NCBI RefSeq assembly: GCF_000023785.1
Contig: NC_012982.1
Span: 310,001 to 374,000, forward strand
DNA from: Hirschia baltica ATCC 49814
Lineage (GTDB): Bacteria > Pseudomonadota > Alphaproteobacteria > Caulobacterales > Hyphomonadaceae
DNA length: 64,000 nt
Reading direction: 5' to 3'
Shown here: positions 45,197 through 50,513 of the stretch, one piece after another
Numbering within the stretch: the first letter of the stretch is position 1
Layout: the number at the start of each line of letters is the position of its first letter
Program-made: the position numbers and the translations under genes
Notes under the pieces: generated by a model
Told to the model about the DNA's origin: nothing
Database searches by the model: none
What the model saw: the letters and a program-made list of their open reading frames with translations, nothing else

Positions 45197-45475
45197 CTAA
45201 CTCGGGTTGAGCAAAGACCTAATCCAGCTACTGGCACCTTCGACTAACTGAGTGCCGGCCCAACCATGTTTGGGTTTCATTTTGATGACAAGAATTGTGT
45301 CATCTTCATCGAGCAGGCTTTGCACCCATTCGCGTACTTCGCGAGTACTTGCGTGTAGCTCTCCTAACCATGTGCTTTCTAATATGCGGCCCACATTTTG
45401 TTCGTCAAATGCTTCATACAATGCATCATAATTTCGGTCGTTGTGCAGATCATAGGAAATAAGAAAAACGGCCAT
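45197..45475 (-). CDS. Orphan Cas2-like (SinR-family) protein
   Basis: 92 residues, the size of Cas2. The N-terminus MAVFLISYDLHNDRNYDALY has the ferredoxin-like first strand ending in Y-D as in Cas2 and in the stand-alone 'SinR family' proteins, followed by a helix, the strand RILESTWLGEL, a helix (EVREWVQSLL) and the strand DDTILVIKM. Asp at position 9 corresponds to the Cas2 metal-site Asp. No CRISPR repeats, cas1 or other cas genes are in the window. AAGGA is eight bases before the ATG. Its function is unknown; adaptation is unlikely. Confidence 0.72.
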   Translation of the reverse strand: MAVFLISYDLHNDRNYDALYEAFDEQNVGRILESTWLGELHASTREVREWVQSLLDEDDTILVIKMKPKHGWAGTQLVEGASSWIRSLLNPS

Positions 45476-45639
45476 TTAAAAATCCTTATGGATGGAAGGG
45501 TTTCGATCTATAAACCAAGCTTACGACTGAGTGCAATTGCTTGATATAAGTAGTTGTGAGGGGCTTGGTTTTGAGCCCCCTTCAAATCTATTCAAAATTG
45601 TGTTAACCTAAGGGCATACAAAATAGAATGATGAGCTTC
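45476..45639. other. Intergenic stretch upstream of the structured RNA candidate
   Basis: No ORF recognised. It holds a 6-bp hairpin GGGGCT/AGCCCC (45560-45565/45574-45579) followed by A/T-rich sequence that may contain the promoter of the RNA candidate. AATGA/TCATT (45627-45631/45638-45642) could compete with its closing helix. Confidence 0.4.
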
Positions 45640-45806
45640 ATTGGCTTGGTCGGAGACTGACGGCACTTATTGCCAGTGCCCACCTGCTAAGGTGAGAAGT
45701 AGGGCTTGCTTACAAGCCATATCCGGCGGATTTTTAAAGCCAATATGCACCCCGCCAGAGGGTTTTGCCAGATCGATTGGCGAGGGACCTGACGGGGTGT
45801 TTCTTT
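45640..45806 (+). ncRNA. Structured RNA candidate with its own terminator
   Basis: A closing helix ATTGGCTT/AAGCCAAT (45640-45647/45737-45744) encloses four hairpins: GGCACT/AGTGCC (45662-45667/45675-45680), CACCT-GCTA-AGGTG (45681-45694), GGCTTG-CTTA-CAAGCC (45703-45718) and ATCC-GGC-GGAT (45721-45731). A terminator-like hairpin CACCCCGCCAG/CTGACGGGGTG (45748-45758/45789-45799, one mismatch) and TTTCTTT follow. Both flanking genes are on the minus strand, so this would be a free-standing plus-strand RNA of about 170-200 bases. It does not look like 6S, SRP, RNase P or tmRNA. The 5' end is not defined. Confidence 0.45.
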
Positions 45807-45808
45807 GT

Positions 45809-46246
45809 CTATAGATCAAACTCTTTCGCATTCAGGCGTTTCGCTAATCCATTACAACGAATGGCAGTTGGTTTATCCGTGCGCACTAATTCCATGGCTA
45901 TTTTATAACTTTCGGCATCAATCTGCTTTTTAGCTTCTTTGTTTTGGGTCGCATTCAAGTTGAGTTTCATTATGCTAGCCAGTTTCAGCATGTTGCGCTT
46001 GGTGTATGCATCATGAGCTGTTTTGATTGTTTCATAATCTTGTTTGCGTTGCATATTTTGCATGCATAACATGCTGGCTGTCGTGGTGCCGGATGCTAGC
46101 TGAATTTTCTCTAGATTTTTATCAGAGAAGGCTGTGCCGTTTGTTGTGGCTTCAGGTGAAAGTGCCTGAGGGGGAGTTTCATTCTTACATGCAATCAGAG
46201 CGAAGCTGGATATGCCAAAATATAGAGCAAGTATTGAGTGTTTCAT
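45809..46246 (-). CDS. Hypothetical lipoprotein
   Basis: 145 residues. Lipobox in ISSFALIACKNE puts the lipidated Cys near residue 20. The mature part is Ala/Thr/Lys-rich, mostly helical, with two further cysteines (SMLCMQNM and AIRCNGLAKR) that may form a disulfide. No family recognised. Processing would need Lgt, encoded at 27.8 kb. It may be transcribed with nothing else: the next gene upstream lies 49 bases away on the same strand. Confidence 0.65.
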   Translation of the reverse strand: MKHSILALYFGISSFALIACKNETPPQALSPEATTNGTAFSDKNLEKIQLASGTTTASMLCMQNMQRKQDYETIKTAHDAYTKRNMLKLASIMKLNLNATQNKEAKKQIDAESYKIAMELVRTDKPTAIRCNGLAKRLNAKEFDL

Positions 46247-46295
46247 GGATTAAGCCCCAGTTTCGTTATTCCATTAGTAGTTTGGGGCGTTTCTT

Positions 46296-47045
46296 TTAAT
46301 AAATCGCTTCAAATAATAGTTTTGCACCTAGCAGGCACATCATTACATAAATAATCAGGTAGAATTTTTCGGTTTCTATCCGCTTTACAATTGCGACCCC
46401 GATGAATGTGGAGATGATGGCGAGAGGCAATAAAATTGCGGATGTTTTCAGGTTCTGTGTTGTCATCTGCCCAAGCGCAAGGAATGCTGGGACTTTGATC
46501 CAATTAACATATCCAAACGCGATTGATTTGGTGCCCACAAGAACATCACGCTGAAGTTTTTGCGGTAAAATCCACATATAGAAGGGCGGTCCACCTGCGT
46601 GGGCTATCTGGCTGGTAAATCCTGTTATAGTTCCAAAAAGCAAACCTGAGCTTAGTTTAGAGCTGGCTGCGATTTGAATTTTGCCCTTGAATTTTTTCCA
46701 GAGATTATGAAGTCCGAAAAATAACGAAATTGCACCCACTGCACCCATAATGGCATCGCGTGAGAGCATGTCCGCATAAAGATATCCAATATAGACACCC
46801 AATGTCATGCTGGGGAGCATTATGAAGACAATGCGCTTATCGACGGTTTTACGATAGGACCATATGCCGACAGCATCCTGACAGATTAGAATAGGGAGTA
46901 AAATGGCTGCGCCCGCAATAGGATCTCCGCCCAATGCCATTATTGGCATGGCGATCGCGCCTATGCCAGCAAATCCACCTTTAGATAATCCGGTAAAGAA
47001 TACAGCGATAGCAGCGCAAATATAGAAGAGAATGTCGGGGGTCAT
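46296..47045 (-). CDS. TauE/SafE-family sulfite or anion exporter
   Basis: 249 residues, about eight membrane helices. Family motifs: AVFFTGLSKGGFAGIGAIAMPIMAL-type helix 1 (GLSKGGFAG, ~residues 19-27), and TGFTSQIAHAGGPPFYMWIL (~residues 140-160), the conserved second repeat with AHAGGP. These inner-membrane proteins export sulfite, sulfoacetate or related anions; the substrate here is unknown. Confidence 0.87.
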   Translation of the reverse strand: MTPDILFYICAAIAVFFTGLSKGGFAGIGAIAMPIMALGGDPIAGAAILLPILICQDAVGIWSYRKTVDKRIVFIMLPSMTLGVYIGYLYADMLSRDAIMGAVGAISLFFGLHNLWKKFKGKIQIAASSKLSSGLLFGTITGFTSQIAHAGGPPFYMWILPQKLQRDVLVGTKSIAFGYVNWIKVPAFLALGQMTTQNLKTSAILLPLAIISTFIGVAIVKRIETEKFYLIIYVMMCLLGAKLLFEAIY

Positions 47046-47101
47046 TCAGACGCGGTATCGCTTAGTTTGAAATATGTCAAAATCTATCTGGCCAAACTGA
47101 A

Positions 47102-47620
47102 CTATTCGCGGTCAGGGCGTATTTCTAGTGCATCTATAAGATAAGGTGCTGCAAATTCAGCAAAATAAACCGCTTGTGTTGGATCGTTGCGAACACCGGC
47201 ATAAGTATCGGCAAAAGCAAGGACGGTGTCTTTGCTGTGTGTGGGGGGGCCGAAAGTATCTATAAATGCAGCTTCCAGAGCTGGAATTTCATTTGGCTCA
47301 ACATTGATGACCGTGACTGCAAGTGCGTCATTCACGAAGAGGAATTCAGCAAGGCGGGGTTGTCCGAAATATTTGAATCCGTAGCAATTTAGCTGAAATT
47401 GAGATGTGACATCTGGGCTATCAATCATGTCGAAAGGAATAACTTCGGTGGCGTCACATTTGCCTTTGAGGTCATTTTCCATTGACCCCATGCGGCTAGC
47501 AAATTCGATAACGGTTGGTTTCTTAACCGACATTGGATCGCGGGGAAGATTACAGGCCGATAAAAAGGGAGCAGCGAGCAAACCAATTGCAGCGATGTGA
47601 AGGCGTTTTGAATTTAGCAT
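47102..47620 (-). CDS. Hypothetical lipoprotein, paralogue A
   Basis: 172 residues with lipobox FLSACNLP (Cys near residue 23). The mature protein contains ENDLKGKCDATEV, a QLNCYGFKYFGQPRLAEFLF block, IPALEAAFIDTFGPPTHSKDT and VRNDPTQAVYFAEFAAPYLI. The same blocks occur in the next gene, so the two are tandem duplicates of one family. Two conserved cysteines in the mature part may form a disulfide. Family and function unknown. AAGGA nine bases before ATG. Confidence 0.7.
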   Translation of the reverse strand: MLNSKRLHIAAIGLLAAPFLSACNLPRDPMSVKKPTVIEFASRMGSMENDLKGKCDATEVIPFDMIDSPDVTSQFQLNCYGFKYFGQPRLAEFLFVNDALAVTVINVEPNEIPALEAAFIDTFGPPTHSKDTVLAFADTYAGVRNDPTQAVYFAEFAAPYLIDALEIRPDRE

Positions 47621-47726
47621 TCGAACATTCCTTTTGCTGGTAACTCAGATAGGAAGCTTCAATTATGCCAGTATCACTCAATGATTTCGTTAAACCAAGT
47701 CTTTGATACAATTGTTTCTATTAAGC

Positions 47727-48257
47727 TTAATCTCGGTCAGGTAATTTATTGACGCGATCAATGACAAATGGGGCTGCCGTTTGGCTATAATATAGCGCTT
47801 CAGGCGTATCGTTGCGAACAGCCGCAAAATTATGGGCATACGCTAATATTGTATCTTTTGAAGAGGTTGGCTCGCCAAAAAGACTTGAGAAAGCCAATTC
47901 CAGCGCCGGAATTTCTTCTGCTTCTACCAAAATCCATGTGAGCATAAGAGCATTATTTACAAACACAAATTCAGCCTTGCGTGGCGCGCCAAAATAACCA
48001 AATCCTTCGCAATCAATTTGAGTTTGGCTGTTCACATCAGGGATACGTGGTGGATCAATTTCCCGAATCTCCAATGATGAGCACTTGTTTTTAAGGGCGG
48101 ATTCCATGTCTGCCACGGAAGATTCAAATGCGATGACGTCCGGCTTCTGTACACTCATTGTGATGGTGTCGTTTGTTTCAGCAAATGTGCAAGCGGACAA
48201 AGCTGTAATGGCGACGGTTCCTGCCAAGCAAGACCGAATCAGATTTGGGGTCAACAT
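47727..48257 (-). CDS. Hypothetical lipoprotein, paralogue B
   Basis: 176 residues with lipobox ALSACTFA (Cys near residue 23). It parallels the downstream paralogue: NKCSSLEIREIDPP, QIDCEGFGYFGAPRKAEFVF, EIPALELAFSSLFGEPTSSKDT and VRNDTPEALYYSQTAAPFVI. The order of conserved segments and the two cysteines is kept, while the rest has diverged, implying an old duplication. Function unknown. AGGA ten bases before ATG. Confidence 0.7.
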   Translation of the reverse strand: MLTPNLIRSCLAGTVAITALSACTFAETNDTITMSVQKPDVIAFESSVADMESALKNKCSSLEIREIDPPRIPDVNSQTQIDCEGFGYFGAPRKAEFVFVNNALMLTWILVEAEEIPALELAFSSLFGEPTSSKDTILAYAHNFAAVRNDTPEALYYSQTAAPFVIDRVNKLPDRD

Positions 48258-48275
48258 TTGAAAGATTCCTAATTG

Positions 48276-48316
48276 GTAAAACTCTCTCCTGACACCATAA
48301 AAATATCAGGAGAGAG
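48276..48316 (-). terminator. Intrinsic terminator of the M13 peptidase gene
   Basis: Perfect 11-bp stem CTCTCTCCTGA/TCAGGAGAGAG with a 13-base loop, followed on the minus strand by TTTTACC. Confidence 0.8.
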
Positions 48317-48332
48317 CTGTTAGTCGTTTGTT

Positions 48333-50513
48333 TTACCAGATTTTTATGCGTTTCTCTGGTGGTAAATAGAGAGCGTGATCTTCGGTGATCCCAAATGCTT
48401 CATACCAAGCGTCTAGGTTACGCACGGGGCCGTTTACACGGTAATATGGAGGGGAGTGAGGGTCAGTGATGAGTTGCTGGCGTGTCGCTTCATCACGGTA
48501 TTTAGACCGCCAAACTTGTGCCCAAGACATGAAGAAACGTTGATCGCCAGTTAGGCCATCAATGACTTTGTCTTCTTCGCCATTCAAGGACAATTTGTAG
48601 GCTTTATACGCCAAAGACAAACCGCCAAGGTCCCCGATGTTTTCACCAAGAGTGAGTTGGCCGTTTACACATGTTTCACCATCGTCTAGCGGGCAAAAAT
48701 CATTGTATTGAGCAACTAATGCTTTGGTAAGTAAGCGGAAACTTTTGAGGTCATCTTCTGTCCACCAATTGGATAAAGATCCGTCAGCACTGAATTTTGA
48801 TCCTTGGTCATCAAAACCATGCCCGATTTCGTGACCGATCACACCGCCGATGGCACCATAATTTACGGCCGGGTCGGCTGATATGTTGAAAAATGGTGGT
48901 TGCAGAATTGCTGCTGGGAACACGATCTCATTAAAGAGTGGGTTATAATAAGCGTTGATTGTTTGGGGTGTCATGAACCATTCATCACGGTCCATTTCAG
49001 TGCCTAGTTGCGAAATATTGTCTTTCCACTGCCAGTCTGATGCTGCGATTTTGTTGTCCAAGGCATGGTCTGTTACAATAAGAGTGTCGAATGTTTCAAA
49101 CTCTTTTGGGTATCCAATTTTCGGGTTGAATGTGTCGAGCTTTTCTTTGGCTTTGACTTTTGTGTCATCGCCCATCCACTCAAGCTCTTTGAGGTTTTCC
49201 GCCATTGCAAGGCGTAGGTTTGCGACGAGTGCATCCATTGCCACTTTATTTTCTTCAGGGAAGTGACGGGCAACATACTCTTTCCCGATGGCTTCACCTA
49301 GAATATTTTCTGTGGCACCAACAGCACGTTTCCAGCGTGCGCGTTGTTCTGGCTGGCCACGCAAAGTTTTGCCGTAAAAATCAAAGTTTGCGTCATCAAT
49401 GTTTGATGGAAGTACACTGGCGTGATCTGATAAGAAATGCGCTGTAAGATAAGCTTTCCAGACATCCAGTGGTGTGTCTTCTATAACTTGGAAAGCTTCA
49501 GGGAAACCGCCGCCCAATTTTGCTGCGTCTTCTGCTGATAAACCAGCTTCATCAAGCTCTTCTTGAGTTGGCGGGATTTCGCCTACGATAAGTTCTGTTT
49601 GTCCTGCTAGACCGATTCCATCGAGGAAAGTGGCAACAGGAAATTGCGTGGCCATAGCTTCTAAAGTTTCAACAGAGATTTTGTTGTAGGTGATTTCAGG
49701 ATTACGTGAGATCGCACGATCCCAGTGTGCTGCAGCGATTTTCGTTTCAAGGTCCATCACTTGTGTTGCGGCTTCCGATGGAGAATCAAAGCCCGCTTCT
49801 GTGAGAAGGAATGTCAGGAATTCCACATATTTGGAACGCTGTTCGACAGATTTCTCATCGCTTTTGAAGTAATAGTCGCGGTCAGGCAGGCCAAGTCCAG
49901 AAAGTCCAGCTTGGAAAATGTAAACATCTGTTTCTTTTGGATCCGCAAAGACATATCCACCAAAAGGAGACGCAAAACCTGCGGACGCGAAGATGTTTGC
50001 AAGGTCGTCTAGGTTGTTTAACGAACTAATGCGATCAAGATAAGGCTGGGCAGGTGTGAGGCCGGCTGCATTGATTGCATCTGTGTCGGAGAAGGCTTTG
50101 TAGAACATGCCAATCTTGCCGGAAGATGTGCTCAAATCTGGTGTGGATTTGGCAAGGTCTTCAATGATTGTACGAACTTGAATTTCTGATTGGTCAGCAA
50201 GTAGGTTGAATGAGCCATAACGTGATTTGTCGGCTGGTATTTCAAACGTGTCATACCATTTCCCGTTCACGTGACGGAAAAAGTCATCACCAGCAGCAGC
50301 GCTTTCATCCATTGCGCTCAGGTCTAGACCAAATGCGCCAAAGTCTGGTGTTTGGGGTGTGACTGCAGTTTTGGTCTCTTCAACAACTTCCGTGACTTCA
50401 GTGACGGCTTGTTCTGCAGCGTTAGTGTCTTCGATGGCCGGCTCAACGCTTGCGCACGCCGCCGCTAAAGAAAGAGCTAGCACTGATGTTGCTAGTTTTA
50501 AGTGTTTTAGCAT
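48333..50513 (-). CDS. M13-family zinc metallopeptidase (PepO/neprilysin-like)
   Basis: 726 residues, with a lipoprotein-type signal (LSLAAACASVEP, Cys near residue 20). Catalytic zinc site VIGHEIGHGFDDQG (HEXXH, ~residue 565) and the third ligand Glu in LGENIGDLGG (~residue 627) are intact. The N-terminal FRHVNGKWYDTFEIPADKSRYGSF and the substrate-binding NAYYNPLFNEIVFPAAILQPPFF are typical. Predicted to be a membrane-attached periplasmic or surface oligopeptidase. TAGGAG precedes the ATG. Single-gene unit with its own terminator. Confidence 0.94.
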   Translation of the reverse strand: MLKHLKLATSVLALSLAAACASVEPAIEDTNAAEQAVTEVTEVVEETKTAVTPQTPDFGAFGLDLSAMDESAAAGDDFFRHVNGKWYDTFEIPADKSRYGSFNLLADQSEIQVRTIIEDLAKSTPDLSTSSGKIGMFYKAFSDTDAINAAGLTPAQPYLDRISSLNNLDDLANIFASAGFASPFGGYVFADPKETDVYIFQAGLSGLGLPDRDYYFKSDEKSVEQRSKYVEFLTFLLTEAGFDSPSEAATQVMDLETKIAAAHWDRAISRNPEITYNKISVETLEAMATQFPVATFLDGIGLAGQTELIVGEIPPTQEELDEAGLSAEDAAKLGGGFPEAFQVIEDTPLDVWKAYLTAHFLSDHASVLPSNIDDANFDFYGKTLRGQPEQRARWKRAVGATENILGEAIGKEYVARHFPEENKVAMDALVANLRLAMAENLKELEWMGDDTKVKAKEKLDTFNPKIGYPKEFETFDTLIVTDHALDNKIAASDWQWKDNISQLGTEMDRDEWFMTPQTINAYYNPLFNEIVFPAAILQPPFFNISADPAVNYGAIGGVIGHEIGHGFDDQGSKFSADGSLSNWWTEDDLKSFRLLTKALVAQYNDFCPLDDGETCVNGQLTLGENIGDLGGLSLAYKAYKLSLNGEEDKVIDGLTGDQRFFMSWAQVWRSKYRDEATRQQLITDPHSPPYYRVNGPVRNLDAWYEAFGITEDHALYLPPEKRIKIW

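What the first reader, a model, noticed from the sequence alone, without database searches (positions are those of the whole stretch)
45640..45806. Multi-helix RNA candidate with its own terminator, opposite to both flanking genes
An 8-bp closing helix encloses four hairpins, followed by an 11-bp terminator-like hairpin and T-rich run on the plus strand, where no ORF is found. The flanking genes (Cas2-like, lipoprotein) are both minus strand, so these structures are not their leaders. I could not match it to 6S, SRP, RNase P, tmRNA or a riboswitch class I know. It is the best candidate for an undescribed non-coding RNA in the window.
Basis: partly seen in the sequence, partly recalled or inferred. 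Interest (0 to 1): 0.7.

Follow-up and report, generated by a model that had tools for sequence, protein, structure and literature searches.

The report
Probable new small RNA in Hirschia
A short stretch between two genes of the marine bacterium Hirschia baltica is almost certainly a functional structured RNA, kept nearly unchanged in its sister species Hirschia maritima although nearby DNA has diverged; it matches no catalogued RNA family, and it looks like an ordinary kind of small regulatory RNA found so far only in this genus.

Summary
The plus strand at 45640-45806 folds into an 8-bp closing helix around three robust hairpins plus two uncertain ones, followed by a very stable terminator-like hairpin and a T-rich tail. 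Rfam gives nothing, even at E up to 10; the genome's 6S RNA lies elsewhere. One homologue was found, in Hirschia maritima: 146 of 169 aligned columns are identical, while fourfold-degenerate sites of neighbouring genes are only 28-52% identical. Differences avoid predicted stems (6 of 102 paired columns, 17 of 67 unpaired; p=0.0004). Four of five changed pairs still pair as plus-strand RNA, one of five as minus-strand RNA. Three single-base indels exclude a protein spanning the element. The Cas2-like gene is absent from H. maritima, so a leader of that gene is excluded; the convergent lipoprotein gene is kept but has diverged to 28% amino-acid identity. Covariance searches of several hundred alphaproteobacterial genomes found no further member; even the third Hirschia genome lacks it. 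True compensatory covariation cannot be tested with two sequences, and no transcript data were available. Best reading: a genus-restricted, independently transcribed small RNA, probably acting in trans by base pairing. New family, known kind.

The parts
45580..45609 (+). Upstream block shared with H. maritima (21 of 30 identical, contains TGTGTTAA); possible promoter or regulator site, not a consensus promoter
   Evidence: 29 of 2000 shuffles as high; one search finds no sigma-70 consensus match
45637..45806 (+). Probable small RNA gene; conservation begins sharply at about 45636 and the RNA is predicted to end in the T-run at about 45806
45640..45647 (+). P1 closing helix, 5' arm
   Evidence: invariant in both species
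45737..45744 (+). P1 closing helix, 3' arm
45650..45654 (+). 5' arm of alternative inner helix P2 (UCGGA/UCCGG; UCGGA/UCCGA in H. maritima), competing with small hairpins at 45649-45661 and 45721-45731
   Evidence: probability about 0.3 in H. baltica, 0.6 in H. maritima
45722..45726 (+). 3' arm of alternative inner helix P2
45662..45680 (+). Hairpin A (GGCACU/AGUGCC); A-U in H. baltica is G-U in H. maritima
45681..45694 (+). Hairpin B (CACCU/AGGUG), stem invariant
45695..45702 (+). Invariant unpaired linker AGAAGUAG, candidate pairing seed or protein site
   Evidence: no target support for this seed
45703..45718 (+). Hairpin C (GGCUUG/CAAGCC); G-C in H. baltica is G-U in H. maritima
45747..45800 (+). 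Long terminator hairpin, -29.2 kcal/mol
45800..45806 (+). T-rich tail TTTCTTT after the hairpin; ends 2 nt before the stop codon of the convergent lipoprotein gene
   Evidence: conserved in H. maritima as TTTCTGT

Best explanation
A stand-alone small non-coding RNA gene of about 170 nt on the plus strand, specific to the H. baltica/H. maritima lineage. It starts near 45633-45637 under its own promoter, folds into a P1-closed multi-hairpin body with an invariant single-stranded linker, and ends at an intrinsic terminator just before the stop codon of the convergent lipoprotein gene. Most likely it acts in trans as a post-transcriptional regulator, by base pairing of exposed conserved segments with mRNAs. 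Shown: conservation far beyond background, stems spared by substitutions, plus-strand bias of tolerated changes, independence from the Cas2-like gene, no protein-coding pattern across the element. Inferred: transcription, exact ends, promoter. Guess from analogy: trans-acting base pairing.
For: 146 of 169 aligned columns identical in H. maritima versus fourfold-site identity 0.28-0.52 in seven neighbouring genes and 0.28 amino-acid identity of the adjoining lipoprotein. It is the only conserved block in the intergenic stretch. Differences 6/102 paired versus 17/67 unpaired, Fisher p=0.00045. Four of five changed pairs stay paired on plus, one of five on minus. H. maritima folded on its own recovers P1, A, B and C. 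Terminator ranks 2nd of 448 T-rich sites. No Rfam match. The left neighbours differ in the two species (Cas2-like gene versus MerR-type regulator), so the RNA is not tied to them.
Against: No transcript data. No consensus promoter, and the upstream shared block is only modestly significant, with spacing to the RNA that differs by 6 nt. Only two homologues, with no double Watson-Crick compensation. A seed test with the invariant linker gave fewer matches before ATG codons than the reversed control, and the one clearly shared non-coding match is a terminator hairpin between ihfB and rpsA, so base-pairing targets are unsupported.
Confidence: 0.75

Rival explanations
1. Minus-strand element: a structured 3' UTR or terminator region of the convergent lipoprotein mRNA, in which the conserved hairpins stabilise or end that mRNA.
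For: The minus strand folds with z=-3.17 in H. baltica; the lipoprotein gene ends a few nt from the element in both species.
Against: Pairing on the minus strand is lost at most changed pairs. No T-run follows the hairpin on the minus strand. The lipoprotein itself is only 28% conserved, so its 3' UTR being kept at 86% would be odd.
Confidence: 0.1
2. The plus-strand RNA acts mainly in cis, as an antisense or convergent partner of the lipoprotein transcript: read-through of one into the other gives duplexes that tune lipoprotein expression.
For: Convergent arrangement with the T-tail touching the stop codon is kept in both species.
Against: The RNA proper does not overlap the coding sequence; cis pairing needs no conservation of the RNA's own sequence or fold, yet both are conserved while the partner diverges.
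Confidence: 0.1
3. Leader (riboswitch or attenuator) of the Cas2-like gene on the minus strand.
For: It lies upstream of that gene on its strand in H. baltica, and the minus strand folds well.
Against: The Cas2-like gene is absent from H. maritima, where the element is kept and the left neighbour is a plus-strand MerR-type regulator.
Confidence: 0.02
4. A small protein gene on the plus strand, or a transcript that carries one (57-codon TTG frame in H. baltica; 15-codon ATG frame inside the terminator hairpin in both species).
For: The 15-codon frame MHPARGFCQIDWRGT/MHPDRGFGQNDWLGT has the same length in both species (sequence).
Against: Three single-base indels and a TGA break any frame spanning the element. 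The 15-codon frame has no visible ribosome-binding site and lies inside a -29 kcal/mol hairpin.
Confidence: 0.03

Closest known systems
Caulobacter crescentus trans-acting sRNAs ChvR, GsrN and CrfA
   Same: Small, intergenic, independently transcribed, multi-hairpin RNAs of an alphaproteobacterium; ChvR likewise is described as specific to one species (PMC6237742).
   Different: No known link by sequence (not aligned directly; no Rfam match). GsrN is a general-stress (sigma-T) transcript with a cytosine-rich 5' loop (PMC5869019); this element shows neither a C-rich loop nor GGAAC in its upstream sequence.
6S RNA (RF00013)
   Same: Size range of 160-190 nt and a closing helix.
   Different: The genome's 6S RNA is elsewhere (52.4 bits at G000:C1:3218650-3218810); this element has no Rfam match and a multibranched rather than rod-like fold.
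Riboswitches and leader attenuators
   Same: Multi-branched body followed by a terminator hairpin.
   Different: No plausible plus-strand gene follows; the convincing genes from 45809 to 50513 are all on the minus strand.

Membership tests
Independently transcribed bacterial small RNA | Lies between genes, is not part of a neighbouring mRNA, and does not encode protein | tested here: met
   opposite strand to both flanks, frame-breaking indels, left neighbour not conserved
Independently transcribed bacterial small RNA | Own promoter | tested here: inconclusive
   a shared upstream block but no consensus promoter
Independently transcribed bacterial small RNA | Intrinsic terminator at the 3' end | tested here: met
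   strong hairpin plus T-rich tail, conserved; the T-run is imperfect and the simple scan does not list it
Independently transcribed bacterial small RNA | Discrete transcript | not testable with these tools
   no RNA-seq available
Conserved structured RNA (covariation standard) | Compensatory changes on both sides of pairs in excess of chance | tested here: inconclusive
   two sequences, three one-sided changes, one U-G/G-U swap, one broken pair
Any Rfam 15 family | Score at or above the gathering threshold | tested here: not met
6S RNA | Match to RF00013 | tested here: not met
   the genome's 6S is elsewhere
Trans-acting base-pairing sRNA | Complementarity of an exposed conserved segment to conserved mRNA sites | tested here: inconclusive
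   for the linker GAGAAGUA only, 25 and 35 matches before ATG versus 53 and 47 for the control pattern, so that seed is not supported; other segments not tested
GsrN-type general-stress sRNA | General-stress sigma promoter (GGAAC...) and C-rich 5' loop | tested here: not met
   read from sequence 45480-45680; C-rich loop from PMC5869019, promoter motif from own knowledge

The most novel reading that the evidence does not exclude
A structured RNA family of Hirschia whose P1-closed multi-hairpin body works not by antisense pairing but as a protein-binding or ligand-binding scaffold, that is, a functional class not yet described.
Probability: 0.1. Interest if true: 0.65.

Novelty: new member of a known kind. 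Interest (0 to 1): 0.36.

Why it matters
It adds a well-conserved, uncatalogued RNA gene to a stalked budding bacterium for which the literature library searched here holds no paper mentioning small RNAs, and gives a concrete, easily deleted locus. Lineage-restricted sRNAs are common, so the wider significance depends on what it regulates.

Tried and rejected
Rfam at gathering and permissive thresholds: nothing. 6S identity: rejected, 6S is elsewhere. Mobile, phage or plasmid element: no strong second copy in the genome and no match in phages, plasmids or viral contigs beyond a 26-base chance hit. Wider family: covariance models over 105 family, 398 order and 385 class genomes (overlapping sets) found only H. 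baltica and H. maritima; the weak hits (16-20 bits) cover only the terminator hairpin or are poor alignments. Loci around the S24-peptidase and TauE genes in G001 and other relatives scored with filters off: only chance-level scores. Leader of the Cas2-like gene: rejected by H. maritima. Seed-target search with TACTTCTC near ATG: below control, and the shared hits are the ihfB-rpsA terminator and a second match not obviously a 5' UTR. Competing helix CCUNCU/AGUAGG: compatible with both species but probability 0.03 or less.

Full report
Identity of the window. The genome has 3,540,114 bases in two contigs, one of 3,455,622, which is the published size of Hirschia baltica (PMC3368421).

Observation. 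The RNA body 45637-45747 folds at -40.6 kcal/mol (z=-3.05) and the terminator hairpin 45746-45803 at -29.2 (z=-4.34). The H. maritima counterparts give -36.4 (z=-3.11) and -26.7 (z=-3.22). Three inner hairpins and P1 are near-certain in both species. The parts next to P1 are ambiguous between two small hairpins (favoured in H. baltica) and an inner helix UCGGA/UCCGG(A) (favoured in H. maritima).

Comparative evidence. A DNA search of 61 genomes gave one real homologue, G002:C4:62808-63000, at 85% identity. Aligned to a structure model, 146 of 169 columns are identical. The two species are far apart: fourfold-degenerate sites in seven neighbouring genes are 28-52% identical, and the adjoining lipoprotein is 28% identical in amino acids. 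Between the S24-peptidase gene and the TauE gene the RNA is the only block that matches; the match reaches a few codons into the lipoprotein gene. Substitutions fall in unpaired columns (17 of 67) far more than in paired ones (6 of 102; Fisher p=0.00045). The structure was drawn from H. baltica, so the H. maritima sequence is a fair test of it.

Strand and coding. Of five variable pairs, four stay paired on plus and one on minus. G-U wobbles that replace A-U and G-C on plus would be A-C mismatches on minus. Three single-base insertions or deletions and an in-frame TGA in H. maritima exclude a protein spanning the element. A 15-codon frame inside the terminator hairpin is the same length in both species but has no visible ribosome-binding site and is probably incidental.

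Context. In H. baltica the left neighbour is a Cas2-like gene (PF09827 at E=3e-4, below the curated cut-off). It is missing in H. maritima, where the left neighbour is a MerR-type regulator on the plus strand. The right side, lipoprotein-TauE-lipoproteins-M13 peptidase, is kept in both. The third Hirschia genome in the collection (G001) shows neither the RNA nor the TauE and lipoprotein genes at the thresholds used. No plausible plus-strand gene follows the element, so it is not a plus-strand leader.

Distribution. Models R1 and R2 over 105 family, 398 order and 385 class genomes (overlapping sets) returned only the two known copies and noise at 16-20 bits. An exact 34-base core pattern over 84,980 species genomes returned only H. 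maritima (the window's own genome may be left out there). The genome search pre-filters by a loose first look, so very distant homologues could be missed.

Function. The anatomy (stand-alone, convergent, strong terminator, multi-hairpin body with an invariant unpaired linker AGAAGUAG) fits a trans-acting small RNA. I tested that linker as a seed: TACTTCTC within 30 nt before ATG occurs 25 and 35 times in the two genomes, below the reversed control (53 and 47). Two matches are visibly shared between the species. One is an intrinsic terminator hairpin between ihfB and rpsA; the other was not placed in a 5' UTR. So the linker as a general seed is not supported, and the mechanism remains an inference from kind.

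Verdict. It is a credible new RNA family of a known kind; expression, ends, promoter and targets remain to be shown.

Noticed in passing
45197-45475: Solitary Cas2-like 92-aa gene (PF09827 E=3e-4, below the curated cut-off), found in only 4 of 105 family genomes and absent from H. maritima; the genes immediately around it are not cas genes.
   Followed up: partly
45728-45738 and 45475-45485: The RNA contains GGATTTTTAAA, which is also the exact ribosome-binding region of the Cas2-like mRNA (same sense, so not complementary); not conserved in H. maritima.
   Followed up: no
45561-45579: GC-rich hairpin GGGCTTGGTTTTGAGCCC without a T-run, between the Cas2-like gene and the RNA; not conserved in H. 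maritima.
   Followed up: no
45809-46246: Fast-evolving small lipoprotein (28% amino-acid identity between congeners, no Pfam match) next to slower-evolving genes; found in only two of 105 family genomes.
   Followed up: partly
45747-45800: A 15-codon ATG frame of equal length in both species lies within the terminator hairpin (MHPARGFCQIDWRGT / MHPDRGFGQNDWLGT); no ribosome-binding site seen.
   Followed up: partly
L086:958-1063: Conserved intrinsic terminator hairpin (GGCCCGAAAAGCAAGTACTTCTCGGGCC plus T-run) between rpsA and ihfB, highly alike in both Hirschia species.
   Followed up: no
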